Source: JAWCQZ01 sp038869515 [NCBI: Halobacteria archaeon] (GTDB lineage: Archaea > Halobacteriota > Syntropharchaeia > JACQPP01). From it: a stretch of DNA of 64,000 nucleotides. Below the pieces are notes generated by a model, which ran no database searches, was not told the origin of the DNA, and saw nothing but the letters and a program-made list of their open reading frames with translations. The DNA lies in contig JAWCQZ010000005.1 in NCBI GenBank assembly GCA_038869515.1, positions 102,279 through 166,278 of the forward strand, read 5' to 3'. This document shows, piece by piece, positions 17,304 through 51,136 of this stretch; positions within the stretch are counted from its first letter, which is position 1, and each line of letters begins with the position of its first letter. Position numbers and translations under genes: made by a program.

Positions 17304-17616
17304 TGTGCCGCACCTTCTCCAGCGCAAGTTGACGCTCCGGGGCGAACGGCGAGCCGCTGATTTCAAGGAGAGGCTCGAGGGCCGCCTCCCCCATCTCCGC
17401 CAGCGTCTCGATGGCGATTTTCCGGTTGTCCGGCGTGAGGGCCGCGCTCAGGGCCAGTTTCCGGAGGCGTTCGACAATGGGCCGGCTCATCCAGAGCCGG
17501 ACCGCCTCTTCCACCGTCCGCCCCAGGTCCCCCTTCCTCCCCCCGTAGCGCTTCGCAATCTCCACCCGCAGTTGCGCCTCCAGTTCGTCGGGGAGAACGA
17601 CGTCAATCCGGCCCAT
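17110..17616 (-). CDS. Ribbon-helix-helix DNA-binding protein
   Basis: A 168-residue frame. The RHH domain is at the N-terminus (about 1-45: MGRIDVVLPDELEAQLRVEI...DLGRTVEEAVRLWM), followed by a helical stretch (IETLAEMGEAALEPLLEISG) up to about residue 105. The last 60 residues are Pro/Arg-rich and are simply the antisense of the CitE gene, so the ancestral protein probably ended near 17300. It is divergent from the gene at 17710. The 34-bp palindrome between them is a likely binding site for it. Start ATG 17616. Confidence 0.7.
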   Translation of the reverse strand: MGRIDVVLPDELEAQLRVEIAKRYGGRKGDLGRTVEEAVRLWMSRPIVERLRKLALSAALTPDNRKIAIETLAEMGEAALEPLLEISGSPFAPERQLALEKVRHIIAQAKHRPRPPETPPAWPPPGLPAPAPPGGGPPYGRRGRRRPRPLARRPRRAAGLSPPPPPTE

Positions 17617-17659
17617 GGGGGCCCATGGGGTGGGTCCCCCATAAAACGGGCGGGTCCCC

Positions 17660-17693
17660 CATATCCACAAACTTTATATAGCGTGTGGATATG
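17660..17693. promoter_or_regulatory. Palindromic operator enclosing a TATA box
   Basis: Perfect inverted arms catatccaca (17660-17669) and tgtggatatg (17684-17693) flank aactttatatagcg, which contains a strong TATA box for the plus-strand gene at 17710. A repressor bound here would cover the promoter; the divergent RHH protein is the obvious candidate. Two copies of gggtcccccata (17632-17643, 17652-17663) with a 20-bp period lie on the RHH side. Confidence 0.75.
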
Positions 17694-17709
17694 TGGTTAT
17701 GTGTAAATC

Positions 17710-18027
17710 ATGGCCCGGATGCGCCAAGCCCCGCCCGAAACCGAGGTCTACGGAGCCTTCTCCGCCATCCTCGACGAGGTCAACCGGATGTTCTCTATCG
17801 GCTCCCTCGGGAAATGGTTCGCGATGAACCGGATCAAGAGCCACGGCGTACGGGAGACCCTCGACTTCATGCAGCGGGTCGCCGCCCACGGGTTCAACGC
17901 GGTGGTGACCCCCGAGGAGCGGGAGGTGCTCCACCGCGCCATCCGGAGGCTGGAGGTCCCGGAGTCCGACCGCGTGGTCTGGGAGCGGCTCCAGGCGAAG
18001 ATGCGCCGCATGAAGATGGCTCCGTAG
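17710..18027 (+). CDS. Hypothetical helical protein
   Basis: A 105-residue, mostly helical, charged protein with no recognised domain (GAFSAILDEVNRMFSIGSLG, TPEEREVLHRAIRRLEVPES, basic C-terminus). The codon pattern is that of the host, and a strong TATA box inside a palindrome lies about 35 bp upstream. Expression is probably controlled by the RHH protein across the palindrome. A toxin-antitoxin-like arrangement is possible but not shown. Confidence 0.6.
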   Translation: MARMRQAPPETEVYGAFSAILDEVNRMFSIGSLGKWFAMNRIKSHGVRETLDFMQRVAAHGFNAVVTPEEREVLHRAIRRLEVPESDRVVWERLQAKMRRMKMAP

Positions 18028-18559
18028 CCGCCTCCCGAAATCGGTTACGTCCAAAATCATCCCGGGGGAGTGAGGGTGCTGTGGACGGGGGTCGGGGGCT
18101 GCGCCCCCTCTCCCTCCGGCGACGGAGGTTGGACCCGTGGGAATCCAGCAGCAAATACCGGCAAATCTCCGCGATGAAAGTGTTTTTTCGGGGGCATTTT
18201 GACTGCCCTATTCACCTCCCCCTCCCCGGATGGTGCTCCCTGCAGTCCTGAGGTCTCCTCCAAAGTGACCCGGTGGTCTGCCGGGGTCCCAAGGAGGTGT
18301 CCACAAGGCCGGTCCCAGGCCGCTGAGGTCTGGGTAGGCCCACCTTCGAGGTGCTGGAGGTCCTCCCGAGCAGGTCCCCGCGGTGCTCATGGGGGCCCTC
18401 ACGAAACCCTCCAGCGGAGGGTCGGGCAGATGGAACGGGATGACCGGAGGATGCGGGGGATGGCGGAGGGCTGGACGTGAGATTGTCGGCAGATGTCGGG
18501 GATGGATTGCGGAGGATTGGAGGGTGTCATCGGGATGGCACCGGCAGATTGCCGAGGTC
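18028..18559. other. Non-coding stretch between hypothetical gene and transposase remnant
   Basis: No frame here shows a domain or a convincing start. The sequence is G-rich on the plus strand, with many ggatg/gggat-type short words, and looks like decayed DNA upstream of the transposase relic. Confidence 0.5.
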
Positions 18560-19134
18560 AACCGGGAAGACTCCGGGTGACCACCGGGAACTGACCGGGA
18601 AGGCGCACAGCGGGGGCATATGGCGGGTGAGAAGGACTCTCATCCAGAGGGTCTGTGCCAGGCTCGCCCCCTGCACTTCCCGCGTGGGCGCGGGGCCCCC
18701 CTCCCCCCTGTCCCGCTTGTGGAGACCGCCCCGGACGCCTCCAGCTCGCCTCTACGCCGAGCCGAGTAGAGGACGAGGAGAGAGCCGAGCAGAGGGTGCC
18801 CCACCGCTTCCGGCTCAGGTAGACGTGGAGCTTCCGGTTCAATTTCCGGAGCAGGTGGGTCTGGCAGAGCTGGTGGCGGAGGCCGAGGTTCCGGGCCACC
18901 ACCGGGTAGCTCCGGTGGTCGTCGGTGACGATGGTGTGGGCCCGCGTCGCCTCCACGACCGGCCTCAGGACAGCCCCGATGGCCTCCGGGCTCCGGTCGG
19001 GGAGGACGCGGACGGCCGGGATGATCCGGGTGGTTGCGTCCCGGACCACCAGGGCGGGCACCATCCGGCCCGACAGGCTGATGAACTTCTCGTCGACCGA
19101 GGGGCATGCCGATGGCGATTTTGGCCTTATCCAT
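18560..19134 (-). pseudogene. DDE transposase remnant
   Basis: A start at ATG 19134 (MDKAKIAIGMP) shifts frame into VDEKFISLSGRMVPALVV, which carries the first catalytic Asp. The second follows in HTIVTDDHRSYPVVARNL, then LRHQLCQTHLLRKLNRKLHV with a Cys-His pair. After about LSRKRWG the frame is lost and no catalytic Glu region is recognisable. The gene is broken at both ends. Its 5' flank (19143-19223) contains the left 54-bp direct repeat that brackets the CRISPR-Cas module, so that repeat may be the end or promoter region of this element. Confidence 0.6.
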
Positions 19135-19169
19135 CCCCTCATCCTGACCCCCGGGAGGCGGGGGTTGAT

Positions 19170-19223
19170 GGTGTTGGAGGTTTAAAAGGCGGAGAAGGTC
19201 ATCCTAAACCGTGGAGGGAAGCC
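19170..19223. repeat. 54-bp direct repeat, left copy
   Basis: Identical over 54 bp, in the same orientation, to 32539-32592. It contains ggtttaaaag near its start and ctaaaccgtgg in its second half. On the minus strand CCTTTTAAACC could serve as a TATA box for the transposase remnant starting at 19134. Its right edge joins a CRISPR repeat that has only 11 bp left. Confidence 0.97.
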
Positions 19224-22200
19224 GGTTTTCGCATGTCGCAGAGAGAATCCTTAACGATTCCTCACGGAAGTGCTCAACGCCTTTCGGCATCAGAGGTTTT
19301 CGCATAGGAAAAAGGGCGGCAAGGGCGGCCTGCTCGGATTGTAGGTGCTCAACGCCTTTCGGCATCAGAGGTTTTCGCATCCTCCGGGGGGGAGTAGGTT
19401 TAAGCCGATGGAGCGTGTGCTCAACGCCTTTCGGCATCAGAGGTTTTCGCATGCCGCCGGACGAAGCCCCCGACCGCGTGGGGTCATAGTGCTCAACGCC
19501 TTTCGGCATCAGAGGTTTTCGCATGGCCTTGGTCGTCTGCTTCTCGGCCTTTTTTTCGGTTTTGTGCTCAACGCCTTTCGGCATCAGAGGTTTTCGCATT
19601 TCTCGATACGACGACATAAATCCGAGTCGGCTCGAAGTGCTCAACGCCTTTCGGCATCAGAGGTTTTCGCATCCGGATAGCATCAACACCATTCCCAGCA
19701 TATGACTGTGCTCAACGCCTTTCGGCATCAGAGGTTTTCGCATTTCAGGATGGCATCCATCCGGGCCTTTTCGTATCTCTCTTGTGCTCAACGCCTTTCG
19801 GCATCAGAGGTTTTCGCATCCGGGCTTACCGGCCCGGGTCGGGGTGTTGGTTTGGTGCTCAACGCCTTTCGGCATCAGAGGTTTTCGCATGCCTTGGTCG
19901 TCTGCTTCTCGGCCTTTTGGTTGGTTTTGTGCTCAACGCCTTTCGGCATCAGAGGTTTTCGCATGCTTTGTCAAGGACTCCGGCGGTCGTTTGGCGGAGT
20001 GCTCAACGCCTTTCGGCATCAGAGGTTTTCGCATGCCTTGGTCGTCTGCTTCTCGGCCTTTTGGTTGGTTTTGTGCTCAACGCCTTTCGGCATCAGAGGT
20101 TTTCGCATCAGGCTTGCCATATCGACCGGCATCCGGCGGGAGGAGTGCTCAACGCCTTTCGGCATCAGAGGTTTTCGCATGCGCTTCCACGCGCGCGGGC
20201 TGGACCCGAGCCACTAGTGCTCAACGCCTTTCGGCATCAGAGGTTTTCGCATAGGCGCTCGTCTGACTGCTTTTAACCCCCCGAAAAGTGCTCAACGCCT
20301 TTCGGCATCAGAGGTTTTCGCATGTGGGGGCGCCGGAGACCCCAGGATTCTGGGGGCTGTGCTCAACGCCTTTCGGCATCAGAGGTTTTCGCATTGCTCA
20401 CGGCCAAAAGGCCGATTGTCGGTGTCACGAGGTGCTCAACGCCTTTCGGCATCAGAGGTTTTCGCATTAAATAGTGGCGGCGAGTAGTGGTTACGATATG
20501 ACAAGTGCTCAACGCCTTTCGGCATCAGAGGTTTTCGCATTTCAGGATGGCATCCATCCGGGCCTTTTCGTATCTCTCTTGTGCTCAACGCCTTTCGGCA
20601 TCAGAGGTTTTCGCATCCGGGCTTACCGGCCCGGGTCGGGGTGTTGGTTTGGTGCTCAACGCCTTTCGGCATCAGAGGTTTTCGCATGCCTTGGTCGTCT
20701 GCTTCTCGGCCTTTTGGTTGGTTTTGTGCTCAACGCCTTTCGGCATCAGAGGTTTTCGCATGCTTTGTCAAGGACTCCGGCGGTCGTTTGGCGGAGTGCT
20801 CAACGCCTTTCGGCATCAGAGGTTTTCGCATGCCTTGGTCGTCTGCTTCTCGGCCTTTTGGTTGGTTTTGTGCTCAACGCCTTTCGGCATCAGAGGTTTT
20901 CGCATCAGGCTTGCCATATCGACCGGCATCCGGCGGGAGGAGTGCTCAACGCCTTTCGGCATCAGAGGTTTTCGCATGCGCTTCCACGCGCGCGGGCTGG
21001 ACCCGAGCCACTAGTGCTCAACGCCTTTCGGCATCAGAGGTTTTCGCATAGGCGCTCGTCTGACTGCTTTTAACCCCCCGAAAAGTGCTCAACGCCTTTC
21101 GGCATCAGAGGTTTTCGCATGTGGGGGCGCCGGAGACCCCAGGATTCTGGGGGCTGTGCTCAACGCCTTTCGGCATCAGAGGTTTTCGCATTGCTCACGG
21201 CCAAAAGGCCGATTGTCGGTGTCACGAGGTGCTCAACGCCTTTCGGCATCAGAGGTTTTCGCATTAAATAGTGGCGGCGAGTAGTGGTTACGATATGACA
21301 AGTGCTCAACGCCTTTCGGCATCAGAGGTTTTCGCATCGCAAGAGGTTGGGAGAGATTCTTGTCAACAACGACAAGTGCTCAACGCCTTTCGGCATCAGA
21401 GGTTTTCGCATGTGAACCCCGGGCAAGACGGGGACATGCTGGCAGAGGTGTGCTCAACGCCTTTCGGCATCAGAGGTTTTCGCATCGTCTGCTTCTCGGC
21501 CTTCTTTTGGGTGGCCATTTGTGCTCAACGCCTTTCGGCATCAGAGGTTTTCGCATATCAGCCCCGGGCCGCCTCCAACGCTTCAGGGGCGTGCTCAACG
21601 CCTTTCGGCATCAGAGGTTTTCGCATCGGCGCGACGCGCGGCGTCTTTCAGCCGCGACCGCCTGAGTGCTCAACGCCTTTCGGCATCAGAGGTTTTCGCA
21701 TACTCTCGCAATCACCGGCGGCGGCGGGAGGGCGACAATCGAGTGCTCAACGCCTTTCGGCATCAGAGGTTTTCGCATGGTGTAATCTGCGGGTGATAGG
21801 TTGTTCGGCCACCGTCGTGCTCAACGCCTTTCGGCATCAGAGGTTTTCGCATGGAACGATTTGTAGGCCCGATGTACGGTTCCGAGCCCTAGTGCTCAAC
21901 GCCTTTCGGCATCAGAGGTTTTCGCATCGTGATGCAAGCCGCACTCAAGGCTGAACCTTCACAAATTAGTGCTCAACGCCTTTCGGCATCAGAGGTTTTC
22001 GCATGCCTGTCGTAGGCTATGCCTTCGGCTTTGGCCGGGGTGTGCTCAACGCCTTTCGGCATCAGAGGTTTTCGCATTCCGGGGTCTGGCGTCGGGCGTC
22101 CCTCGCCGCGATGGCGGCGTGCTCAACGCCTTTCGGCATCAGAGGTTTTCGCATGCGACTCTTCGTGGAGTGTCTGCGGGACAGGTCTGGGTGCTCAACG

Positions 22201-23851
22201 CCTTTCGGCATCAGAGGTTTTCGCATTCGAGCTGTTGCTCCACTGCGAAATGTTTCCGGCAGGTGCTCAACGCCTTTCGGCATCAGAGGTTTTCGCATGA
22301 GGTGGCGGCGGCGAGGGCGGCGGCGTGGTCGCGCTAGTGCTCAACGCCTTTCGGCATCAGAGGTTTTCGCATGTGGAAGCGACTCGCAGCGGCCCGCCGC
22401 CACAAGTGGAGTGCTCAACGCCTTTCGGCATCAGAGGTTTTCGCATGACGCCAGCGACGCGGTGACGGCGGGGAGTGGACGGGTCGCGTGCTCAACGCCT
22501 TTCGGCATCAGAGGTTTTCGCATTAGCCCGCGCGCGTTGATACGCGCTACGGCGGACGTGTGCTCAACGCCTTTCGGCATCAGAGGTTTTCGCATAGTCC
22601 CACAAACGTTCACCGATGAGAGCCTCGCGTCCATGTGCTCAACGCCTTTCGGCATCAGAGGTTTTCGCATAGGCCAAGACCGCGCGGATTGTCTCGCGGC
22701 TTCGGATTGGGTGCTCAACGCCTTTCGGCATCAGAGGTTTTCGCATTCGGCCAGCACCGTATCAAGAGACGCCTGCAGCTCGGGTGCTCAACGCCTTTCG
22801 GCATCAGAGGTTTTCGCATGTGACCGTGCCCCTGCCCGTCTCCCTCGGCGAGAAGCAGTGCTCAACGCCTTTCGGCATCAGAGGTTTTCGCATGGCCTTC
22901 TGCTGCTCGGCCTTCTTTCGGTTGGTTTTGTGCTCAACGCCTTTCGGCATCAGAGGTTTTCGCATATGACGGTTCGGGAGAAGCACGCAATCAATATCAC
23001 CGAGTGCTCAACGCCTTTCGGCATCAGAGGTTTTCGCATACGCCCAATTGGACGCCGAATTGACTTGTTAATTTGGGTGCTCAACGCCTTTCGGCATCAG
23101 AGGTTTTCGCATTTTGGTGTCACCTCCTTGGCTCCCCGTTTGTTTTCGGTGCTCAACGCCTTTCGGCATCAGAGGTTTTCGCATGTCTTCACTGTCACCG
23201 ATTCCGCGGGGACTCCCGTGTGCTCAACGCCTTTCGGCATCAGAGGTTTTCGCATGTCACCTCCCGCTCCCCGTTTGTCGTCGTAACATAAAGTGCTCAA
23301 CGCCTTTCGGCATCAGAGGTTTTCGCATTGGCGACCCACGTGGCAGAGGCTCTCATCCACCCCGAGGTGCTCAACGCCTTTCGGCATCAGAGGTTTTCGC
23401 ATATGGCTCCGTCGATGTACGGTTCTCCGGCCATCTTCCGGCATAGTGCTCAACGCCTTTCGGCATCAGAGGTTTTCGCATTCGGTGATGCGTCCGGGGG
23501 TCCGGGGGGAAGGGTCATCTATGTGCTCAACGCCTTTCGGCATCAGAGGTTTTCGCATGGCCACCTTCTTGGCGCGCAGGATTTCCTCGATCGGGACTTG
23601 TGCTCAACGCCTTTCGGCATCAGAGGTTTTCGCATTAGAAAAACATGAGGACCTCACGGTAACTGAATAGGTGCTCAACGCCTTTCGGCATCAGAGGTTT
23701 TCGCATTTAAAATCCTGGGGACCCTTCTCCATGAGGCGGTCGTGCTCAACGCCTTTCGGCATCAGAGGTTTTCGCATTCCGGTCTCGGGAAAATCCTTGG
23801 CGGTCCCTCTCCCATGTGCTCAACGCCTTTCGGCATCAGAGGTTTTCGCAT
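19224..23851 (-). CRISPR. CRISPR array: 63 full 36-bp repeats, 63 spacers, one terminal partial repeat
   Basis: Full repeats start at 19270 and recur every 68-80 bp to 23816-23851; I count 63, all apparently identical. On the plus strand each begins gtgctcaacgcctttcgg and ends catcagaggttttcgcat. Spacers are 34-43 bp. Read on the minus strand the repeat ends in GTTGAGCAC after a small GCC-GAAA-GGC hairpin, which suits a type I 5' handle, so transcription should run from the leader at 23852-24111 leftwards, continuing the cas operon. The oldest end is cut: only ggttttcgcat (19224-19234) of the last repeat remains, fused to the 54-bp direct repeat. Eleven spacers are present twice in an exact tandem block. 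Confidence 0.98.
19708..21301. repeat. Exact 797-bp tandem duplication within the CRISPR array
   Basis: Block 19708-20504 (11 repeats and 11 spacers) is repeated without visible change as 20505-21301. Matching landmarks, all offset by 797, include spacers beginning ttcaggatggc (19744/20541) and taaatagtggcgg (20468/21265). The spacer following the second block (cgcaagaggttgg) is new. Confidence 0.93.
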
Positions 23852-24111
23852 CCCGCGCCGTGGATTCGCGCGGGGCCGTTCAGGAACCAAGACCTCATTC
23901 AGGCTAAAACCTCTCGCAGACCAAGCGTCAGAGGCCGGTTGTAGACGTGGTGGAGCGTTGAATCGAGAGCGGGCGGGGCCTCCCTGCGCCCTTGAAGTGT
24001 ATTCAAGCACCCGAAGGGCCGAGAAACAGGCCTTCGAGGCCCCTCTGAGTTCCGGTTTTACCAAAAAATGCCGCCGTTCCACCCGTGCCACCGGGAGGTC
24101 CTTGAACGCCA
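23852..24111 (-). promoter_or_regulatory. CRISPR leader
   Basis: The 260 bp between the cas2 stop and the first repeat, on the side from which new spacers should be added. It includes an A+T patch (ATTTTTTGGTAAAACC on the minus strand, about 24055-24070) that could hold the array promoter. An ORF overlapping the cas2 stop also runs through it (see findings). Confidence 0.7.
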
Positions 24112-24396
24112 TCACACGACCACATGCCCGGGGGGCTCTTCGGGCCAACTCCCGCGGGAGTCCCGCCGCTTGAGGCGGGTCGTGCACGCCTTGCACAGCC
24201 CGATGAAGAGCGCGTCGTCCTCGTGAGCCATGACCTTGGCCAGTTCCCAGCGGAGACGCTCCACGTCGCGCTCGGAGAGGTTGCAACGGAATACGCTGTA
24301 CTGGAGCCTCTCACCGTAGCCCTCCAAGATTCGGGCGACGTGGCGGAGGCGCGTGTCGTCCCGGATGTCGTAGCTGACGAGATACCATCTCTTCAT
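24112..24396 (-). CDS. cas2: CRISPR-associated endonuclease Cas2
   Basis: A 94-residue ferredoxin-fold protein with the standard start MKRWYLVSYDIRDDTRLRHV (the Asp of the YDI motif is present), then RLQYSVFRCNLSERDVERLR. Cas2 bridges two Cas1 dimers in the spacer-integration complex. It is the last gene of the cas operon, three bases after the Cas4-Cas1 stop, and adjacent to the leader. Confidence 0.97.
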   Translation of the reverse strand: MKRWYLVSYDIRDDTRLRHVARILEGYGERLQYSVFRCNLSERDVERLRWELAKVMAHEDDALFIGLCKACTTRLKRRDSRGSWPEEPPGHVVV

Positions 24397-24399
24397 GGC

Positions 24400-26046
24400 C
24401 TATCGCAGCCGGAACTTGGCGAACAGGCCTGGTTGGGAGGTCCACTCCTTCTCCAGCAGGCGGGCCTCCAGTTCAATCATCCGGGCGTAGGAGAGCGAGT
24501 AGCCCGTCACCGGGTGCTTCCACACCTCCTCCAGCCGCCCCTCATACAAATCGATGGCCTTCCGGCGGCCCGCGTCAGAGAGCCAGACGTGGTCCCTGGC
24601 CACGGAGAAGTCGGCCTCGGGGTCCCACTGGCGCCGGTTGATGGAGGCCACCACGCTCATGTCCCAAACGGGGACGCGGAAGAGCTCCATGAGGTCGAGG
24701 ACGAGAGGGTGGGCGGAAGACCGCGGCGTGTGGAAGAACCCCAGGGCGGGCTCCAGCCCAACCGCTAAAATCGCCTGGTGCACCGAGCGGTAGAGGAGGG
24801 CGTAGCCGAAGGAGAGGAGGGCGTTGAAGCGGTCCCGGGGCGGCCTCCGGGTCCGGCCCCGGGGACGCAGGGAGTCCGGAATCTCCTTTCCGAGGAGGAG
24901 GGGGAGCGCCTCGAAATAGGCCCGGGCGGCCGACCCCTCCAGGCCCCGGAGGGCGTCCACCCCCTCGGCCTTCACCATCTCCCTCATGCGCTGCCGGATT
25001 TCGCCCGCGGCCCGGTCCACCTCGGGAAGCCGGCCCTTCTCTCCGCGTGTGGCCCGCAGGAGGAACCGGAGCTGCCCCTCCGCCCGCGCCATGGCCAGCC
25101 GCCGGGCCAGCCGCAGGCAGACGCCCGGGTCGGAGAGGGCCTGGTACTGGCGGATGCGCCTCTGGACGGGCCCCGGGCCGGCGGCGAGGCCGCCCACATA
25201 CCGCCCCCCGCCCGTGAACCAGTGGACTGAAACTCCGCGGGCGGCGCAGAGGTAGAGCGCCTGGGTCGTCGCCTGGGCGTGGCCGTGAATGACCAGCGCC
25301 GAGACGCTCTGGATGGGGAAGGAGTGCTCCTTCCTCTCTTCGTCCTTGACCACGAGGGTCTCCCCCGACCGCGAGACCCGGGCAGAAGGCGACACTACAT
25401 GGACCGCCTGCCCGTCCGGGTGGGGCGGAAAGAGCCGGACCGGTTCCCACGCGGGGTTCTGGGCCAGCCGCTCCTCCTCCGGGAGGCAGACCGGGGCCAG
25501 GGAGCACCGCAGGCAGAGGCGCTCGTTGGCGGTCACCGGGGGCCGGACCCCCGCGGCCCGGAGAGCCCGGGCCCGCTCCACCGCCTTCCGGACCGCCTCC
25601 CGGGCCGCCCCGTCGAGGGGGACGCGGGCGGTGACGTTCTCCGCGTGGTAGCGGACGCGCCCCTCGGCCACGGGGCGGCCCGTCGCCTCCTCCAGGAGCA
25701 TCCCGTAGGCCGACACCTGGAGGGCGTCCGAGGGCCACGCCTCGGGCACCTCCTCGGCCCCCCTCCGGGACCGCCCCCGCTTGTGCTCGTAGGGGACCCA
25801 GCCCCCCTCCCGGTGGCGGAGGGCGTCCACCTTGCCCGTGAGGCCCAGGGATTCGCTGGAGAACTCGAAGGTCCGCCGCTCGGCCGCCTCGTCCCCGGCC
25901 AGCTCCTCGTGGAGGGTCCGGCCCGCGTAGACCGACTCGTCGGCGATGCGGATTTCCTCGACCCACTCCAGGTAGTAGAGCCGCTCGCAGTATTCCAGGG
26001 CGTGGAGGGCCGCGACGGGAATCGTGGGGTTGTCGTCGTCGCTCAC
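24400..26046 (-). CDS. cas4-cas1: Fused Cas4-Cas1 spacer-acquisition protein
   Basis: A 548-residue fusion. The Cas4 part (about 1-190) has the first Fe-S Cys in ALEYCERLYYLEW, the RecB-nuclease motifs GKVDALRHREGGW and PYEHKRG, and the Cys triad in CLRCSLAPVCLPEE. The Cas1 part (about 215-548) has the catalytic Glu in AYFEALPLL (about 378), His in GFFHTPRSSAHPLVLDL (about 437) and the acidic residue in LDLMELFRVP (about 449). Cas1 integrates spacers and Cas4 trims and orients prespacers by PAM. The GTG start at 26046 overlaps the cas5 stop (GTGA) and is preferred over the 26-residue Pro-rich upstream extension. The fusion is typical of MYXAN-type and I-G systems. Confidence 0.95.
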   Translation of the reverse strand: MSDDDNPTIPVAALHALEYCERLYYLEWVEEIRIADESVYAGRTLHEELAGDEAAERRTFEFSSESLGLTGKVDALRHREGGWVPYEHKRGRSRRGAEEVPEAWPSDALQVSAYGMLLEEATGRPVAEGRVRYHAENVTARVPLDGAAREAVRKAVERARALRAAGVRPPVTANERLCLRCSLAPVCLPEEERLAQNPAWEPVRLFPPHPDGQAVHVVSPSARVSRSGETLVVKDEERKEHSFPIQSVSALVIHGHAQATTQALYLCAARGVSVHWFTGGGRYVGGLAAGPGPVQRRIRQYQALSDPGVCLRLARRLAMARAEGQLRFLLRATRGEKGRLPEVDRAAGEIRQRMREMVKAEGVDALRGLEGSAARAYFEALPLLLGKEIPDSLRPRGRTRRPPRDRFNALLSFGYALLYRSVHQAILAVGLEPALGFFHTPRSSAHPLVLDLMELFRVPVWDMSVVASINRRQWDPEADFSVARDHVWLSDAGRRKAIDLYEGRLEEVWKHPVTGYSLSYARMIELEARLLEKEWTSQPGLFAKFRLR

Positions 26047-26690
26047 GGGGGGAGGATGGGGGTCCAGGCCTCCGGGGGCGGCCCATCGGTCCAGGACCCC
26101 TCTCGAAGTTGGTACTGCCCCCACCGGGTCCCTGCAGAACCAACGTGGTCGGCCCAGACTGGAAGGGTCAGGTCGCCCTCGGGGTTTCGGGCCAGGATTT
26201 GCCCGGTGGTGCCGTCATCCCTGCGCCATCGCCTCGCTTCGTCCACGAGGTGGGTGCTCTCGCCAAGCGAGAGGGCGCCGAAACGGTTGGACCGCGCGGG
26301 TTGCTCGATGGCTCCATGCACACGCTCGGCCAGCGGCGGATTGGCCTCTTCCTTCTCGCCGGGCCTAGTCCATACCACCAGCCGAACCCCCGTGAGCAGT
26401 TCCTGAAAGTCGGGGCGCTTGTTCTCCCCAACCCCGGGCGGGGTGTCCTTGTCCTTGACCCGCCATAGGGTGCGGAGGACTACCGACCGGGCTGGTGGGG
26501 GGTTGAGCAGGGCCAGGGCGACCTCGGCCCCCTTATGAGCCAGGCGGTTCGGCTCCCCTGCGAGGGAGAGGAGCATCCCGTAGACAGTGGAAGGGGCCGG
26601 GCAGGGGAGGGTCTCGAAATACTCCCGGGCCTGGGGGACCCGGAAGCACGCCACAGGGACGGAAACATAGAGGGCCACCGGCGGGTCCAT
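26043..26690 (-). CDS. cas5: Cascade subunit Cas5
   Basis: A 215-residue RAMP protein. The N-terminal signature is LYVSVPVACFRVPQAREYFE and PCPAPSTVYGMLLSLAGEP, the Cas5 beta-strand plus glycine helix; mid-protein are RTLWRVKDKDTP and LTGVRLVVWTRPG. Cas5 caps the crRNA 5' handle in Cascade. It lies between cas7 (5-bp gap) and cas4-cas1 (4-bp overlap). Sequence and neighbours resemble the DevS-type Cas5 of MYXAN systems. Confidence 0.88.
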   Translation of the reverse strand: MDPPVALYVSVPVACFRVPQAREYFETLPCPAPSTVYGMLLSLAGEPNRLAHKGAEVALALLNPPPARSVVLRTLWRVKDKDTPPGVGENKRPDFQELLTGVRLVVWTRPGEKEEANPPLAERVHGAIEQPARSNRFGALSLGESTHLVDEARRWRRDDGTTGQILARNPEGDLTLPVWADHVGSAGTRWGQYQLREGSWTDGPPPEAWTPILPP

Positions 26691-26695
26691 GGGCC

Positions 26696-27622
26696 CTACT
26701 TGAGTTTGAGGTCCTTCTGGATTCGGCCCTTGACCTCTTCAGCGGCTGCCTTGACGCCAGGGAAGACTTTCGCCCCCTTGAGCGACTCTGCGCCAGCGAC
26801 GGGGCCGCCGATGACGAGTTCCTCGGGGTCGATGTCCCCCGCCTCCGCACGCCGGATGATGTCAGGGATTTGGAGCCCTGCCTTCCCGTCCATCTGGAAA
26901 CCGTAGAGCATGCGCGGGGCGAAGTCATCGGTCCAGCGGAACACCACCGCCTCGGGGGAAAAGTCGAAGAGGAAGCGGCTCTGGTTGCCCGCGACCTCCG
27001 AGAGACTCGCGATGGCGTCCACCACGTGGAGCGCCCGCTCTTTGAGAGCGAGGCTTTCGGGAGTGAGGGCGAGTCCATACTGGTAGCGGGTGGCGTGCAC
27101 CTCGGTCCCGTAGGGCACGGGGTCCCTCTGGGTTTTGCTGGCCGAGGGCGTGGCCCCGACGCTGGCCGCGTTGAAGGTGATATCGCCGGACCAGGGGGTC
27201 AGGGAGATGGCACGGGTCACTTCCAGTCGGGAGCGGCGCACTCGGGTCGTGCCTTTCTTCCGCTCACGCTTACCTTCCTTGGCTCCCGCCTCGGCGTCGT
27301 TTGCCTCCTCCTTGGCAGCCTCGGCAGACATGAAACCCAGCACATCATCGTCGACGTATTTCTTCTCCGACCCCTCCCCGAATTTGCCGTCCTGCCAAGT
27401 GTGCTTATTCCCGTCATCGTCCCACGTCCGGTTGAGTTGCAAGCCTTGGCGCTGCCACTGCTTGCGGATTGCGTTCCGGATCGCCTCGGCGGAAACGGTG
27501 GTGTGGGTCTCGCCGTTCCAGAGTATCTTCTGCAGAGTGGTGATGTTCCCTTCGGTCTCTCCGCGGTTGTTGGCTGCGGTGCCGAAAGGGGTGGCAATCA
27601 GCCCGAAGAGGTGCTTGCTCAT
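26696..27622 (-). CDS. cas7: Cascade backbone subunit Cas7 (DevR-like)
   Basis: A 308-residue RAMP protein with the Cas7 hallmarks GLIATPFGTAANNRGETEGN at the start, ETHTTVSAEAIRNAIRKQWQ (RNA-binding helix, about 40-60), TRAISLTPWSGDITFNAASV (about 135-155) and VPYGTEVHATRYQYGLALTP. Cas7 forms the helical backbone along the crRNA. A Lys/Glu-rich insert (about 100-125) is charged and probably loop-like. The ATG overlaps the cas8 stop (ATGA). Confidence 0.92.
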   Translation of the reverse strand: MSKHLFGLIATPFGTAANNRGETEGNITTLQKILWNGETHTTVSAEAIRNAIRKQWQRQGLQLNRTWDDDGNKHTWQDGKFGEGSEKKYVDDDVLGFMSAEAAKEEANDAEAGAKEGKRERKKGTTRVRRSRLEVTRAISLTPWSGDITFNAASVGATPSASKTQRDPVPYGTEVHATRYQYGLALTPESLALKERALHVVDAIASLSEVAGNQSRFLFDFSPEAVVFRWTDDFAPRMLYGFQMDGKAGLQIPDIIRRAEAGDIDPEELVIGGPVAGAESLKGAKVFPGVKAAAEEVKGRIQKDLKLK

Positions 27623-29154
27623 GTCCCGCTCTCTCCGGTCTCGTCTGATTCACTTGAATCTTTCTGTTGACCTTTGTAGCTGGCCAGGGCCAGCAGTGCA
27701 AGGTCCCTGCCCTCGCGCCATCTCTCCCCGAGGAAAGGCATGACCTCGCCCCAGCCGTCTTTGAGGACGTCCAGGGGGCCGCCGCGGGCCCAGAAGTCAG
27801 CGATGGTCTCGCGCAGGGCCTCCGGGCTCTTGCAGCGCGCGAAGGAGACCCGGACCTTCTGGAACTCCGTGTCCCAGTCCGCGCTCTGGCGGCGGGCGAA
27901 CCTCCGACCCATGTGGTTCCGAAGGGCCTGCTGGCAGGCTCGGACAAATGTCTTCGCCGGACCCTGGGGGAAGGCCTCGTTGCTGTCCACCATGTTACCA
28001 AGACCTCGCCGCTCATACTTAAAAATGTGGTCCCGCCGGTCCCGGTCTGCCACATAGTCGGCGAACCCCTGCCACCAAGGGCGTCCTCCGATGAGGTTAC
28101 GGGCCACCAGCTCCGGCACCTGGGGCGTAGCCCAGATGGGCCGTCCATCCTTGGACAACACCGGCTTGCCGTCCTTCGACTTGGCCAAGTGAGGAACAAG
28201 ATCCGGTTGTTGGCGACAGACCTGATAGGCTCTCAATACCTCCTTAGAGCCGACCTGGACTGTGAAAATCTGAACCCGGGTCTTTTGTTGGGTTGACCAA
28301 GGCACGGTGCCGAAAGAGATGACCCGACAGGTGTTCGAGCCAAGCCCATCTCGACCCAGCAGTTTCTCAGCCTCCAGAACAGCCAGAACCCGCAGTCCTG
28401 CTTCGGCCGTTCCGGCCGCCTTCAACTCCTTCACCCCGTGCTTCAGGAAGACGGCGCGCGCCCGGGCGTAAACCTCCAAATCGGCGACGTCGGGAATGAC
28501 CAATGCGAATTGCGGGCGCACGCCCTCTCCGCGATGTTGCATTTCGAAGTAGATGCCACCCACAGGGGCGTAGAGGAGAGAGAGCAAGCGCTCGGCTGGC
28601 TCCTCCAGCGCCGTGGAGTTTTGACCGTGGCCGGTGTGTCGCACGACCCCTCCAGGATATTGCCATCCCGCGAGGGACAGGCTGGAACCGTCCAAAGGAA
28701 TCATCGCTCCTTGATGCGCATATCCCGCCACTTTCCGGAAGTTCAGTGGATACCCCACTCCGTCGATCTCGGGGGCGAAAGAGCCGGTGGGCTTGTTCGA
28801 GGGGTCGGCCTTCCGGGTTTTCCCGTGTTGGAGGAAGGTCCCAAGCACGGCATTTTGCAGAACCACCGCCGCCTGCTTGTTGTCGATGGGCTGCCCCAGT
28901 GCAGGGAACCAAATGAGGCCGTTCTTATCAATGCGGAAGGACTCCTTGAAAAGTGCATCAAAGAACGCTTTCTTCTCCCACTGCAGAGTCACGCTTCGGC
29001 GGGTCCTCTTCCATGTGCCGCCCGCCTTCTGGAGCCTCGCTACCGCCACCGGGTCACTCTCCAACGCCTTCAGCGTCATCCAGAGCCCCGCGAGCCCAAC
29101 CCGGTGAAGGGAGGTCATCCCCGGGCTGGAAAGGTCGATGGTGAGTTCGCTCAT
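27619..29154 (-). CDS. cas8: Cascade large subunit Cas8 (Cmx8/DevT type)
   Basis: A 511-residue protein. The opening LTIDLSSPGMTSLHRVGLAG and GLWMTLKALESD, then NGLIWFPALGQP and YPLNFRKVAGYAHQG, are the family pattern of the MYXAN large subunit (Cmx8/DevT), placed within type I-B. The large subunit recognises the PAM and recruits Cas3. The start at 29154 is chosen because its ATGA overlaps the cas3 stop; MAE at 29163 is an alternative. The C-terminus ends in a Ser/Glu-rich tail overlapping cas7. Confidence 0.85.
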   Translation of the reverse strand: MSELTIDLSSPGMTSLHRVGLAGLWMTLKALESDPVAVARLQKAGGTWKRTRRSVTLQWEKKAFFDALFKESFRIDKNGLIWFPALGQPIDNKQAAVVLQNAVLGTFLQHGKTRKADPSNKPTGSFAPEIDGVGYPLNFRKVAGYAHQGAMIPLDGSSLSLAGWQYPGGVVRHTGHGQNSTALEEPAERLLSLLYAPVGGIYFEMQHRGEGVRPQFALVIPDVADLEVYARARAVFLKHGVKELKAAGTAEAGLRVLAVLEAEKLLGRDGLGSNTCRVISFGTVPWSTQQKTRVQIFTVQVGSKEVLRAYQVCRQQPDLVPHLAKSKDGKPVLSKDGRPIWATPQVPELVARNLIGGRPWWQGFADYVADRDRRDHIFKYERRGLGNMVDSNEAFPQGPAKTFVRACQQALRNHMGRRFARRQSADWDTEFQKVRVSFARCKSPEALRETIADFWARGGPLDVLKDGWGEVMPFLGERWREGRDLALLALASYKGQQKDSSESDETGESGT

Positions 29155-31436
29155 TTCCGCCATGTCGCCCCCCACTCCTCCGAGTAATCGATGCGGCCCT
29201 CGGGTGCTACGAGCGCCATGCCCAGGCGCGGCGGCCAACTGCGAATCTCCTTGGCCACGGGAGGAAGAAGCATCGGTATGGCGTATCTGACCACTTGGTC
29301 GGACTGGACACGGCCTCTCCAGTCCTTGCAGGCCGCGGCATCTTCACCCCGGACGACGGGAATGGTGGCGCTCCACTCGCGTAGAGGGGAGGGGGCAGCG
29401 AAAGGTCCGCCATCCAGCCAAGCCGATGTCACAAGCCCTTCGACTGATGGGGCTCCATCCATCTCCCTGAACGCCTGGGCGATGTCTTTCTGGGATAGCG
29501 GTCCCGCGCCCAGGTTCTCCAGCCATCTTCGAGCGACATCCAGTTCCTGCCCTGCGTAGGGATTTGGCTTCTCCGGTTGCAGGAAAATCGCCCGCTTCGG
29601 TTCGCCTGGAACTTCCGGGCCGGCCCTTCGGTTCAGGCGCCCCAGGCGCTGGATGAGGGCGGGGACCGGAGCCATGTCCGATACAAGGAGGTCGGCAGAT
29701 AGGTCCAGGGAGACCTCGCAGACCTGGGTAGTAACGGCGAGGGCGGGCCCTCCGGCTCCAAAAGCATCGACCACGGCGCGGTGTTTGTTCAACCTGTCGA
29801 TGTAGCGGTAGCGGCTGTGGTATGGGAGGACGGGCGCGAGCCCGCGCTCCCTCGCCTCCCTGGCAAGGGCAACCGCCCGGTCCACTGTATTGGCCACCCA
29901 GAGGACCTTTCCTCCCGCCCGGAGCGTCTTCTCGACTTCTGGCCAAGGGGGGTCGGCTGCGGGTGGAGACAGGACGTATCTCGGCAGTTGCTCTATGTCG
30001 GAGGGTCCCTGGACTTCTGCCATGTTCTCCCCTAGGTCTGTGAGCACTCGACGGATGGCCTCATGCCTGTCGCGCGGGAGCGAGGCCGTCATTAGCAGGA
30101 TCGGCGAACCGCGAAATGCCTTCAGGAAATGGAGCAACGTCCCGAACATCCGGTCGTCGTAGGCGTGAACCTCGTCGAACACGAAGGCCCCGCCAGCGAT
30201 GGCCGGGAACTGGAAGAGCCCGCGACGGTAGTTCTGCACGAGCCCGAGGACGGTGTCGGCCGTGCAGACCACCAAGGGGACGTCCCAAGCGGACAGGGCC
30301 TCGATTTTGGTCTGCTCCTCTTCCAACCCGGTGCCCGTGTGGTCTCCGTTTCCCATGATTCCCTCCAGGTCAACCTCGGCCCGGCTGTGGATGAGGCGGC
30401 CCTCGATATCGTCAGGATGGACGTAGTCCCGGTAGCCTTCGGTGGCCGTCCCCGTGGTAGGATAGCAGAAGAACAACTTCCGCCCTCTCGCCCGATTGGA
30501 GGCCCAGAGGTAGGCGGCCAGGGTCTTCCCGGTTCCGCACCCGGCGCTCACAAAGGTCACCCGGGCGCTGCTTTCAGCGACTTCCTCTTGGAAATGGCAT
30601 CTGGAGCAAAGGCAGGGATGCTTCCCGCCGAGTTTCCTTTGGGCTAAGTCCATAAGGTCTTCCGGGGAGCAGTTCCGGCTGAGGACTTTCTCGGACCACT
30701 GGACTGGGTCCATGCCTTCTCGGGGCAGAGCCGAACTTGCCACATCGGCGGCTACAACGAGTGCTTTCACGAGTGGCACGAATCGTTTCTCCTCGGGTTT
30801 TGCCTCTTCCCACCATCCATAGGCTTGAGGAAGCCAGGTTTTCACTACATCCAGGGGGTCGTCCAAGAGGTTCAGGTCAATGTCTTTGAGGTCCGGGATG
30901 GAACCGGACGCATTCAACAGGGACCTCGCCTTCCCGAACAGCGCCCGAACGTCAGGATGGCCGGTAAGCATACGCACGGTGGTGTCTCCGCTTCCCTGGC
31001 GCGGCTCCAATGCGGAGCCGACTTCAAAACGGAGGTGATGCCCAGCCACTGCGAAGAGGGCTGCTTGGCGGGTGACCCCATCACACCCATTAAACAACCA
31101 CGCATCCAACTGCGGGAACCGAAGAGGCAGCCACAAGCTAAGCCGGTCATGGAAGAGCGCCTGTGGCGGGTCCGGTCCTTTCCGGAGCATGCGCTGGAAC
31201 TGGTGGTTGGCTTTCCCGAGGTCGTGGAGGAAGGCACATCGAATCGCCGCCTGTTTGAGACTGTTTTCCCAAACCTGCGGGTCGAGCCCGAGGGATTGCA
31301 GATAGAGGTTGCCCTGGCTCTCGACTATGGCATTAGCAACCCTCATTGCAGCGAGAGTGTGACCAATGAGCGTCTCCCGCTCCTCCGGATTGTCTGGACG
31401 TTTGCTTGATTTCGCCAGGAGCCGTCGGACCATCAT
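29151..31436 (-). CDS. cas3: Cas3 nuclease-helicase (HD-DExH)
   Basis: A 761-residue protein. The HD nuclease domain comes first (ETLIGHTLAAMRVANAIV, CAFLHDLGKANHQFQRML with the HD pair near residue 70). A Cys motif, CLCSRC, follows near 275. The SF2 helicase has Walker A SAGCGTGKTLAAYLW (about 300), DEVH box VFDEVHAYDDRM (about 420), motif III LLMTASLP and motif VI LIQRLGRLNRRA. It degrades target DNA after Cascade binding. The ATG at 31436 overlaps the cas6 stop (ATGATG). A complete single-chain Cas3 argues that the effector is functional. Confidence 0.93.
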   Translation of the reverse strand: MMVRRLLAKSSKRPDNPEERETLIGHTLAAMRVANAIVESQGNLYLQSLGLDPQVWENSLKQAAIRCAFLHDLGKANHQFQRMLRKGPDPPQALFHDRLSLWLPLRFPQLDAWLFNGCDGVTRQAALFAVAGHHLRFEVGSALEPRQGSGDTTVRMLTGHPDVRALFGKARSLLNASGSIPDLKDIDLNLLDDPLDVVKTWLPQAYGWWEEAKPEEKRFVPLVKALVVAADVASSALPREGMDPVQWSEKVLSRNCSPEDLMDLAQRKLGGKHPCLCSRCHFQEEVAESSARVTFVSAGCGTGKTLAAYLWASNRARGRKLFFCYPTTGTATEGYRDYVHPDDIEGRLIHSRAEVDLEGIMGNGDHTGTGLEEEQTKIEALSAWDVPLVVCTADTVLGLVQNYRRGLFQFPAIAGGAFVFDEVHAYDDRMFGTLLHFLKAFRGSPILLMTASLPRDRHEAIRRVLTDLGENMAEVQGPSDIEQLPRYVLSPPAADPPWPEVEKTLRAGGKVLWVANTVDRAVALAREARERGLAPVLPYHSRYRYIDRLNKHRAVVDAFGAGGPALAVTTQVCEVSLDLSADLLVSDMAPVPALIQRLGRLNRRAGPEVPGEPKRAIFLQPEKPNPYAGQELDVARRWLENLGAGPLSQKDIAQAFREMDGAPSVEGLVTSAWLDGGPFAAPSPLREWSATIPVVRGEDAAACKDWRGRVQSDQVVRYAIPMLLPPVAKEIRSWPPRLGMALVAPEGRIDYSEEWGATWRK

Positions 31437-32083
31437 CTGGTTTCCGTGCGAGATGGCACGAATATCCCGCACCCAAACCTCCTCCTTCCCCCCAGCCCCG
31501 CCTCCTGCAGCCGGACCGACTCCTCTGCCGTCAGCCCGCCCACCTGCATCGCATACCCGACCACCATCTTGTCCCGAATGCGGAGCGTTCTCCGGACGAA
31601 GGGGGACCGCCCCTCGGCGCCCGACTTCCTTTCCAGGGAGCGCGGGGCCGTGCGCCGGAGGAGCCCCGGGGTCCCCTTCACACCGAGTTCTTCGAGTTGC
31701 CTCCGGGCCGCGCCCAGGAAGGGTTCCGGCTCCATGAACCCCTTGATGACCACCAGGCGGCTCCTCAGGCTGGCCGCTGGCCTGAGGGCAAGGGTCCGCG
31801 GGACCCCGACGCGGACCTCGTGGCCATCGACTTCCAGATTTTTGCCCGCCAGGGGCAGGAGTTGGCCGATCCGCTCGCTCGGGACCCGGAAGGTCAGCCG
31901 GCTTGCGGGGGTGAGGGCAAGAAGGCGGTTGCCCGTCAGAACCCCGGGGACGGGATGGACCCCGATTTCCCCGTCCTCGTGCAGCCACGGCAGCAATCGG
32001 CAGAGGGCGGAGTAGAGGGGGTATCCGTGGTCTGCGGGCATCTCCTTTCCTTGGAGGGGGAAGGCGACGTCTACTACCGGCAT
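31433..32083 (-). CDS. cas6: CRISPR RNA endonuclease Cas6
   Basis: A 216-residue RAMP endoribonuclease with the C-terminal glycine-rich loop GLGGRRRFGCGIFVPS (last 25 residues) and a Cmx6-like N-terminus PVVDVAFPLQGKEMPADHGY. It cuts the pre-crRNA at the repeat hairpin. It is the first gene of the operon. ATG 32083 is chosen because a TATA box (minus strand TTTTTATAAAC, 32105-32115) sits about 27 bp upstream, which fits a leaderless start; a GTG at 32101 is too close to that box. Confidence 0.85.
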   Translation of the reverse strand: MPVVDVAFPLQGKEMPADHGYPLYSALCRLLPWLHEDGEIGVHPVPGVLTGNRLLALTPASRLTFRVPSERIGQLLPLAGKNLEVDGHEVRVGVPRTLALRPAASLRSRLVVIKGFMEPEPFLGAARRQLEELGVKGTPGLLRRTAPRSLERKSGAEGRSPFVRRTLRIRDKMVVGYAMQVGGLTAEESVRLQEAGLGGRRRFGCGIFVPSRTETR

Positions 32084-32104
32084 ACCCAGCCATAGGAGCA
32101 CGGA

Positions 32105-32144
32105 GTTTATAAAAATTGGGCGAGCACAGCGAGCCCAATTTTTA
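32105..32144 (-). promoter_or_regulatory. cas operon TATA box overlapping a 12-bp inverted repeat
   Basis: The TATA box TTTTTATAAAC (minus strand, 32105-32115) overlaps one arm of the perfect inverted repeat taaaaattgggc (32110-32121) / gcccaattttta (32133-32144). The arms can act as a terminator for the aldolase fragment (A/T-rich outer stem) and as an operator over the cas promoter. Confidence 0.65.
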
Positions 32145-32504
32145 TTTCTTCTTGATTTCTTTGAGCGCCTCTTTCACCGTCGCGTTCCCGTGGACCACCC
32201 TGGCAATCGCCCGGGTCATCCCGGTCGGGTCGGCGTGCTGGAAGATGTTCCTGCCGATGGAGGCCCCCTTCGCTCCGGCTTCCATAGCCCCCCGCACCAT
32301 CTCCAGGACATCGGAGTCGGAGTCGGCTTTCGGGCCCCCCGCGATGACGACGGGAACCGGGCACCCCTTCACCACCTCGGCGAAGGTGTCGGGGTCTCCG
32401 GTGTAGGGCGTCTTGATGATGTCGGCCCCGAGTTCGGCGCCGAGGCGGGCCACGTGCTTCACGTGCTCCGGGACCCCGCCGTGATTTATGACTCTCAACC
32501 ACAA
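32142..32504 (-). pseudogene. C-terminal half of a DhnA/archaeal class I aldolase
   Basis: A 120-residue frame, from [20 protein letters not shown] through [23 protein letters not shown] and [20 protein letters not shown], matches the second half of archaeal-type fructose-bisphosphate aldolase/ADH synthase, including the Schiff-base Lys region (IKTPYTG) and the phosphate-binding glycines. The first 130 or so residues are missing; homology stops about 35 bp short of the right 54-bp repeat. It is probably dead and was cut by the event that created that repeat. Confidence 0.75.
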
Positions 32505-32538
32505 ACTTCTCCCGATTTTTGAAGACGGAGGGGGCTCG

Positions 32539-32592
32539 GGTGTTGGAGGTTTAAAAGGCGGAGAAGGTCATCCTAAACCGTGGAGGGAAGCC
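32539..32592. repeat. 54-bp direct repeat, right copy
   Basis: Identical to 19170-19223. It lies between the aldolase fragment and the stop codon of the UPF0175 gene. Together the two copies frame 13.3 kb containing the array, leader, all cas genes and the aldolase piece. Confidence 0.97.
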
Positions 32593-33261: not shown

Positions 33262-34302
33262 ATGACCAGACCCCAGAGCTTGGACGACTTCAAGGCCCTC
33301 GTGCAGGCTACCTTGGAGAAGAACGAGGACTCCCTTCAGGCATTCGGCAAGACCCCTTCGGCTCAACTCAAAGGATATTTGATTGAAACCAATCACCCCT
33401 CAATTGATAGCGCGGGGTGTCCTGCGGGGGAGTGGGAACCCCTCGGCGCTCCCAGTTGGTACGTGAACAAAGATCCAAAGCACGGGAGGTCACTCTTCGC
33501 AGACGTATCCACGGGTAGGGTCTGGCGAATCTACAGCCTCCTTGATGCGACGACCTCCGACGGATTCATAGACTCTTGGGTAAGGGAGACGAGTGGATTG
33601 GATCACTGCTGGCTTTCGAGGAATCTTTTGTTACGCTACGAGAAGGCACAAAACTGGCAGCGGCGTGGACTCGGCCTGAGGTACGTGGATACCCTCTCTC
33701 CAGAGGAGGAGGCAGGTTACTTCAGTTTGAAAGCATGGCTCCGCGCATCAGAGTATCTTCCAGCACTCAGCGAAGTCTTGAAGATTGCTGAGGAGAAGTT
33801 TGCAATTTATAGTGTCCGCTGGCAAAAAATCTCCAACGGCTCTGTCTCAATCTCCGGCGAATGGTACAGCAACGGGAAGGTCACCATCAACAGGGGTGTC
33901 GATGTCGACGAGGTTCTGACCTTCATTTCCCAGATGGCGGTTCACTACGATAGAGAACTACACAAGGTAACGAAGATGCGCGATCAGTCGATGGCCGCAT
34001 TTGAGATTAGTTTCTCCCAGAAGCCAAATCTGGATCGTTTCGCCGATGTGACCGCTGGGGGGACGGGGGAGACGGGGATGTGGCTTACAGAGCTCGAAAA
34101 GAGCGCGGGGTTGAGGAGATTCAAGGGAGTCGACCTACACACCTGGGACCGTATCTTCTTGGACATTTCAGAGGAATTCGCCCACTTGGTGATTCCAAAG
34201 AAGGGATGCATCAATGCGGCACCGAGATTCGCCGTTGCTCAAGGGGAGAACAATCTGGGCAAGACGACTATTCTGTACGATGGGGTTGAAGTATTTGTCT
34301 AA
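33262..34302 (+). CDS. Hypothetical protein, first gene of a low-GC pair
   Basis: A 346-residue soluble protein not assignable to a family. It is mixed alpha/beta (WYVNKDPKHGRSLFADVSTG, VWRIYSLLDATTSDGFIDSW), with a region resembling a TIGR04255-type beta sheet towards the C-terminus (WLTELEKSAGLRRFKGVDLH, IFLDISEEFAHLVIPKKGC). Base composition and codon choice are clearly more A/T-rich than the flanks, which indicates horizontal transfer. A strong TATA box lies 55-65 bp upstream. The next gene begins 23 bp before this one ends, so they act together. A defence role is inferred from location and partner only. Confidence 0.7.
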   Translation: MTRPQSLDDFKALVQATLEKNEDSLQAFGKTPSAQLKGYLIETNHPSIDSAGCPAGEWEPLGAPSWYVNKDPKHGRSLFADVSTGRVWRIYSLLDATTSDGFIDSWVRETSGLDHCWLSRNLLLRYEKAQNWQRRGLGLRYVDTLSPEEEAGYFSLKAWLRASEYLPALSEVLKIAEEKFAIYSVRWQKISNGSVSISGEWYSNGKVTINRGVDVDEVLTFISQMAVHYDRELHKVTKMRDQSMAAFEISFSQKPNLDRFADVTAGGTGETGMWLTELEKSAGLRRFKGVDLHTWDRIFLDISEEFAHLVIPKKGCINAAPRFAVAQGENNLGKTTILYDGVEVFV

Positions 34303-51022: not shown

Positions 51023-51065
51023 CCCATACACCTCTATAGACCGGGTATTAAATGTATTTTCTTAT

Positions 51066-51136
51066 GGACCCGTGGGGATTTGAACCCCAGACCCTCCGGT
51101 TGCAAACCGGATGCTCTACCGCTGAGCTACGGGCCC
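51066..51136 (-). tRNA. tRNA-Ala (anticodon TGC)
   Basis: On the minus strand GGGCCCG pairs with CGGGTCC (acceptor). The D stem is GCTC/GAGC, the anticodon stem TCCGG/CCGGA encloses TTTGCAA, and the T arm is TGGGG-TTCAAAT-CCCCA. The CCA end is not encoded. It is not in the rRNA operon position usual for tRNA-Ala. Its 3' end faces the integrase gene. Confidence 0.95.

What the first reader, a model, noticed from the sequence alone, without database searches (positions are those of the whole stretch)
19170..32592. A 54-bp perfect direct repeat brackets the complete CRISPR-Cas module
Copies at 19170-19223 and 32539-32592 are identical and in the same orientation. The left copy cuts the terminal CRISPR repeat after 11 bp; the right copy lies beside an aldolase gene that has lost its N-terminal half. 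Array, leader, all cas genes and the aldolase fragment thus sit on a 13.3-kb cassette with repeat ends. The left repeat adjoins the 5' flank of a transposase relic, so the repeats may be IS ends (composite-transposon-like) or recombination sites.
Basis: seen in the sequence. Interest (0 to 1): 0.75.

Follow-up and report, generated by a model that had tools for sequence, protein, structure and literature searches.

The report
IS-end remnants bracketing a CRISPR-Cas locus
The perfect 54-base repeat on either side of this archaeal CRISPR-Cas system is the shared end of two broken copies of a jumping gene, one of which cut into the CRISPR array; it looks like a decayed scar rather than a demonstrated mobile immunity cassette.

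Summary
The repeat is real: 19170-19223 and 32539-32592 are identical and direct. It is the terminal 54 bp of an insertion sequence (IS). A related MAG (G001; DP2 60% identical) has four dispersed copies of a homologous end, and their flanks diverge at exactly the base where the repeat ends in the window. In the window the left copy runs into a gutted transposase (to about 18804); the right copy is a 54-bp stub. The left end cuts a leader-distal CRISPR repeat, leaving 11 bp; the missing part of that repeat and any target duplication were not found to its left. The module between is a complete type I-MYXAN operon with 63 repeats. Its Cas4-Cas1 is about 53% identical to cyanobacterial plasmid proteins but at most 38% in any listed class match, so it looks laterally acquired. 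The aldolase fragment inside the repeats is 72-75% identical to its best class orthologues, so the repeats do not delimit the foreign unit. Two IS insertions plus decay fit best. A working composite transposon or a pair of recombination sites is not supported, though a decayed one is not excluded.

The parts
19170..19223 (-). Left copy of the 54-bp IS end; terminus at 19223, TATA-like CTTTTAAA at 19181-19188 reading leftwards
   Evidence: Identical to the right copy; terminus matches that of four IS copies in G001
18804..19223 (-). Left IS relic: end, leader, and a DDE transposase fragment lacking its N-terminal region, C-terminal part and second IS end
   Evidence: tblastn of archaeal transposases, best E 5.4e-11 over 18804-19145; weak IS66/IS240/IS1595/IS6/ISH6 scores, all below curated cut-offs
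32539..32592 (-). Right copy of the 54-bp IS end, a stub without transposase; terminus at 32592
19224..19234 (+). Last 11 bp of a leader-distal CRISPR repeat, cut by the IS terminus
19270..23851 (+). 63 full CRISPR repeats (36 bp); 63 spacers counting the one beside the cut repeat, 51 distinct
23852..24111 (-). Presumed leader between array and cas2
   Evidence: Position only; inference
24112..24396 (-). cas2
   Evidence: TIGR01573, 49.3 bits, above cut-off
24400..26124 (-). cas4-cas1 fusion, I-MYXAN type
   Evidence: TIGR03983, 512.8 bits, and TIGR00372, 77.2 bits, above cut-offs
26043..26690 (-). cas5 (DevS/Cmx5); ORF as listed overlaps cas4-cas1
   Evidence: TIGR02586, above cut-off
26696..27622 (-). 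cas7 (DevR/Cst2)
   Evidence: TIGR02585 and TIGR01875, above cut-offs
27619..29238 (-). cas8a1 (Cmx1/Csx13)
   Evidence: TIGR03485 and TIGR03486, above cut-offs
29151..32138 (-). ORF holding cas3; the Cas3 matches cover residues 242 onward, and cas6 overlaps its upstream part in another frame
   Evidence: TIGR01587 and TIGR01596, above cut-offs
31433..32101 (-). cas6 (Cmx6); likely start at 32083
   Evidence: TIGR02807, 220.4 bits, above cut-off; ATG located; start choice inferred
32103..32145 (-). Hairpin (-17.2 kcal/mol for the 50 bases 32101-32150) and TATA-like TTTATAAA (32106-32113) between aldolase fragment and cas6
32142..32477 (-). 3' part of a DhnA-type aldolase (ADH synthase-like) gene; N-terminal ~60% missing
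   Evidence: PF01791, PRK07226 and TIGR01949 (below whole-protein cut-offs as expected for a fragment), orthologue alignment
32478..32538 (.). About 60 bp of unassigned sequence between aldolase fragment and right IS stub
   Evidence: Only short class matches

Best explanation
The two 54-bp repeats are the same end (terminus plus promoter-like region of the transposase gene) of two copies of one archaeal IS. One copy inserted into a leader-distal CRISPR repeat, or deleted DNA up to it, leaving 11 bp of that repeat and losing whatever lay beyond. Another copy landed 8 bp past the stop codon of a small gene, near an aldolase gene. Deletions then gutted the first copy and cut the second to its terminal 54 bp, with loss of the aldolase's 5' part. 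Shown: the IS identity of the end, its base-exact terminus, the broken transposase, the cut CRISPR repeat, the truncated aldolase. Inferred: the order of events and the deletion mechanism. The CRISPR-Cas module itself looks laterally acquired, but the 54-bp repeats are not shown to have carried it.
For: G001 has four exact 17-bp matches to the repeat, with contig ends 84-115 bp beyond the match, as expected of a multicopy element that breaks assembly. Its end aligns with the window's left copy into the transposase start (score 35; best of 500 base shuffles 11). The four G001 flanks diverge exactly 9 nt before CCACGG, and the two window copies stop matching each other at that same base. The left copy continues into a DDE transposase fragment. 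No other half of the cut CRISPR repeat lies left of the IS, and no 5- to 9-base start of the right-hand flank occurs in 16801-19170, so the original flank is gone. The aldolase fragment is class-typical (72-75% for the best rows) while Cas4-Cas1 is not.
Against: Only one relative (G001) shows the IS end, at four loci, and no full-length copy was found, so the second IS end, the element length and the target duplication are unknown. The perfect 54-bp identity and same orientation are also what a pseudo-compound transposon would leave. A weak TIR-like alignment at 17745-17767 scores just above the 95% point of shuffles (23 against 22); I read it as chance, inside an ORF. The host genome is not held, so copy number there is untested.
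Confidence: 0.8

Rival explanations
1. Decayed pseudo-compound transposon: two directly repeated IS copies moved the CRISPR-Cas module with the aldolase piece as one unit to this site, and the IS copies later decayed.
For: Same orientation and perfect identity of both ends; each outer edge of the repeat is an IS terminus; the module looks foreign to the class; IS6 elements form such direct-repeat units (PMC7986276, passages).
Against: Neither copy is whole; the aldolase fragment inside is class-typical, so the foreign/native border (about 32101-32142) is not at a repeat; no matching duplication was found outside the copies: no 5- to 9-base start of the right outer flank occurs in 16801-19170; same orientation is expected half the time by chance.
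Confidence: 0.12
2. The 54-bp sequences are dedicated recombination sites (att/dif-like) of an integrating element carrying CRISPR-Cas.
For: Exact direct repeats at both sides; short inverted GGTTTA/TAAACC arms inside the sequence.
Against: The same end occurs at four dispersed loci of G001, which has no Cas1 match, next to a transposase start; no recombinase among the ORFs scanned between the repeats; the only tRNA in the window is at 51065-51136.
Confidence: 0.03
3. Assembly artefact: a misjoin at an IS end.
For: IS ends break assemblies; in G001 all four copies lie at contig ends.
Against: The right copy leaves the IS sequence after 54 bp and runs into an aldolase gene fragment, which a simple misjoin between intact IS copies would not give.
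Confidence: 0.05

Closest known systems
CRISPR-Cas loci bordered, cut or rearranged by IS elements in archaea (Sulfolobales review PMC4390879, passages read)
   Same: IS material at a CRISPR-Cas border and inside a CRISPR array.
   Different: Another IS and another lineage; both copies are decayed; the review calls such events rare and cites one ISH4 and one 132-bp MITE in euryarchaeal loci in an early study.
IS6-type pseudo-compound transposons (PMC7986276, passages read)
   Same: Two IS copies in direct orientation around a cargo.
   Different: Here one copy is a 54-bp stub and the other is gutted; IS6 membership is not supported by score; no movement is shown.
IS insertions into cas genes (PMC10359306, abstract and passages read)
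   Same: IS disrupting a CRISPR-Cas locus.
   Different: Here the array's leader-distal repeat is cut, while each cas gene model matches above its cut-off.
Type I-MYXAN systems on cyanobacterial plasmids (e.g. Nostoc sp. CENA543 NZ_CP023280.1)
   Same: Same Cas4-Cas1 type, 53.2% identity over 96% of the query.
   Different: The window is archaeal by its DNA polymerase DP2.

Membership tests
Insertion sequence (any family) | Multicopy element with a precise terminus at unrelated sites | tested here: met
   Four copies in G001 with one shared terminus and unrelated flanks; the window edges coincide
Insertion sequence (any family) | Transposase gene beside the end | tested here: met
   Left copy: DDE transposase fragment, E 5.4e-11 to L020. 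Right copy: none
Insertion sequence (any family) | Inverted second end and target-site duplication | tested here: inconclusive
   Not found in the window; only distant relatives show 8-bp duplications, 10 of 14 copies examined of 18 matches, read by eye
IS6 family | Transposase above the IS6 model cut-off (NF033587) | tested here: not met
   18.1 bits against a cut-off of 125; the relic is a fragment, so this is weak
Pseudo-compound (IS-bracketed) transposon | Two intact directly repeated IS copies around the cargo | tested here: not met
   Direct orientation met, intactness not met
Pseudo-compound (IS-bracketed) transposon | Movement or excision of the unit | not testable with these tools
   No reads, no host genome, no close relative
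Type I-MYXAN CRISPR-Cas | Cas8a1, Cas7, Cas5, Cas6/Cmx6, Cas3, Cas4-Cas1, Cas2 and an array | tested here: met
   Each has an NCBIfam model match above cut-off; 63 repeats

The most novel reading that the evidence does not exclude
The direct IS stubs are the scar of an IS-bracketed unit that carried a bacterial-type I-MYXAN CRISPR-Cas system into an archaeon; the surviving 54-bp direct repeats could still let the whole 13.4-kb immune module be lost by homologous recombination, and the right stub's promoter-like element points at the cas operon.
Probability: 0.1. Interest if true: 0.5.

Novelty: new member of a known kind. Interest (0 to 1): 0.25.

Why it matters
It explains an eye-catching perfect repeat as an IS end, with the terminus fixed to the base from an independent genome, and warns against reading such repeats as cassette borders. 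It also documents an IS cutting the old end of an archaeal CRISPR array, which a 2015 review describes as rare, and a bacterial-type I-MYXAN system in an archaeal lineage where the searches run here found no close relative of it.

Tried and rejected
Exact 32-bp search of genome contigs and viral contigs: no match. A 17-bp core match in one viral contig (L053) has no transposase-like continuation and lies in what reads as phage coding sequence; taken as chance. Transposase relic against plasmids and viral contigs: nothing. Relic in class genomes: 2 of 58 matched, 27-33% identity; in phylum genomes: 11 of 392, 24-45% identity, none a close copy; not in G001 itself. The 141-bp G001 end in phylum genomes: 2 of 392, G001 itself and one 33-bp match in G118 at 85% (E 7e-4), not followed up. 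Search of G001 for a second, inverted end within 3 mismatches: only the four known exact matches and two 3-mismatch ones, against 1 in the control. Second IS end near the left relic or beside the right stub: one alignment just above the 95% point of shuffles, the others not above it. The 65 bases beside the right stub: short matches in 5 of 58 class genomes; three of the six loci I looked at share one context that reads as coding by eye. Aldolase N-terminal part elsewhere in the window: no significant match. Flank genes sought to find an empty site: the left-flank lyase matched 1 of 58 genomes (35%), the right-flank ORF 33262-34302 matched 4 of 58 (three at 57-58%); I did not examine the surroundings of those matches, so the empty-site test was not completed. 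Cas8a1: 0 of 392 phylum genomes, but the tool warns that an empty answer without a positive control shows nothing. Spacers against the rest of the window: longest matches 17-19 bases, no near-full match. One search used the wrong reading frame of the relic and is disregarded.

I considered the right stub as promoter of the cas operon. A hairpin and a separate TATA-like element directly before cas6 make that less likely; it is kept only in the novel case.

Full report
Observation. The two 54-bp copies at 19170-19223 and 32539-32592 are identical and direct. Their 18-bp core has no third match in the window within 3 mismatches; 0.04 matches are expected by chance. The left copy abuts the last 11 bp of a CRISPR repeat. 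The window is about 65% GC and encodes an archaeal DNA polymerase DP2. Of 4 loci found for it in genome contigs, the best is 60% identical, in a groundwater Euryarchaeota MAG, here G001. No whole genome is held for the window.

What the repeat is. The repeat plus the 11-bp CRISPR flank was searched in the 58 genomes of G001's class. 30 of 58 had some match at E up to 1. The best rows are four exact 17-bp matches in G001 (E 0.025 each); the remaining rows start at E 0.09, are short, and look like chance. All four G001 contigs end 84-115 bp beyond the match. The four share one sequence: terminus, CCACGGTTTAGGATGAC, a leader, and the start of a coding sequence resembling the window's left relic. 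Aligned to the left copy it scores 35 against a best of 11 in 500 base shuffles. The G001 flanks diverge at the base 9 nt before CCACGG, and the two window copies stop matching each other at the same base. So 19223 and 32592 are the IS terminus, fixed independently in another genome; 54 bp is simply what is left of the IS in the right copy.

State of the IS copies. Left: behind the end lies a DDE-type transposase fragment. The best homologue (L020, 432-aa open frame) aligns from its residue 174 to 285 over window 19145-18804, E 5.4e-11. The aligned part begins at about the first codon of the window's open frame (ATG at 19142), so the N-terminal region is missing; that this is a deletion is inference. 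No C-terminal part and no second end was found. The relic's family scores are all below the curated cut-offs, so the IS is left unassigned. Two multicopy distant relatives show short terminal inverted repeats and 8-bp duplications in 10 of 14 copies by eye (14 of the 18 matches were aligned). Right: 54 bp only, then about 60 bp of unassigned sequence, then an aldolase fragment lacking about 60% of the protein. The terminus lies 8 bp past the stop codon of a 73-aa open frame without Pfam, NCBIfam or PADLOC hits.

What is bracketed. Reading on the minus strand: cas6, cas3, cas8a1, cas7, cas5, cas4-cas1, cas2, a presumed leader, and an array of 63 full repeats with 63 spacers, 51 distinct. The cut repeat is at the leader-distal end. 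The other 25 bp of it was not found left of the IS: all 63 window matches within 3 mismatches lie in the array. No 5- to 9-base start of the right-hand flank occurs in 16801-19170; for the right stub only a 5-base match at 32494 turned up. So the DNA once beyond the left IS has been lost or replaced. Cas4-Cas1 matches 169 plasmid records, the best at 53.2% over 96% of the query in Nostoc. In the class 44 of 58 genomes match, the top row at 34% and none listed above 38%; G001 has no match. Lateral acquisition is therefore likely (inference). The aldolase fragment matches 53 of 58 class genomes, best rows 72-75%. The inside of the repeats is thus a mixture of class-typical and foreign DNA, and their border (about 32101-32142) lies at neither repeat.

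Mechanism. Two insertions of one IS followed by deletions need no special machinery and explain the exact terminus, the cut repeat, the lost aldolase part and the absence of duplications. Same orientation is expected by chance in half of such cases. A decayed pseudo-compound transposon is not excluded (0.12). Recombination between the 54-bp repeats could in principle delete the module; this is inference and untested. The IS end carries a TATA-like element reading away from its terminus, which in the right stub points at the aldolase fragment and the cas operon; a hairpin and a separate TATA-like element stand before cas6, so the operon probably has its own promoter.

Literature. [quoted passage not shown] PMC10359306 (abstract and passages) reports natural IS insertions into cas genes. 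PMC7986276 (abstract and passages) describes IS6 pseudo-compound transposons in direct repeat. PMC6807381 was seen in a search listing only. The six searches run listed no title describing this locus; this does not prove absence from print.

Verdict. Observation confirmed; IS-end reading supported; mobile-cassette reading not supported. Interest is modest.

Noticed in passing
19744-21301: Segmental duplication in the array: spacers 8-18 are repeated exactly as spacers 19-29 (797-bp step), and spacer 10 equals spacer 12 within each block.
   Followed up: partly
19525-19563, 19891-19928, 21486-21520, 22894-22929: Spacers 5, 10, 32 and 51 look like variants of one sequence (CGTCTGCTTCTCGGCCTT...), as if taken repeatedly from related targets (by eye).
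   Followed up: no
33262-35140: Two overlapping ORFs of unusually low GC (51-53%, GC3 0.62-0.65) right of the repeat; the first has 57-58% homologues in three of 58 class genomes and no NCBIfam or PADLOC hit.
   Followed up: partly
42700-44010: AAA ATPase with matches to PADLOC IetA models (best E 2.4e-19); a partner was not sought.
   Followed up: no
32478-32538: About 60 bp of unknown origin; one frame reads [11 protein letters not shown], resembling by eye short stretches of other coding sequences in class genomes.
   Followed up: partly
L039 and L041 (G385): Two copies of a distantly related IS lack matched duplications, but the left flank of one (TTTTTGCT) equals the right flank of the other, suggesting recombination between the copies (by eye).
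   Followed up: no
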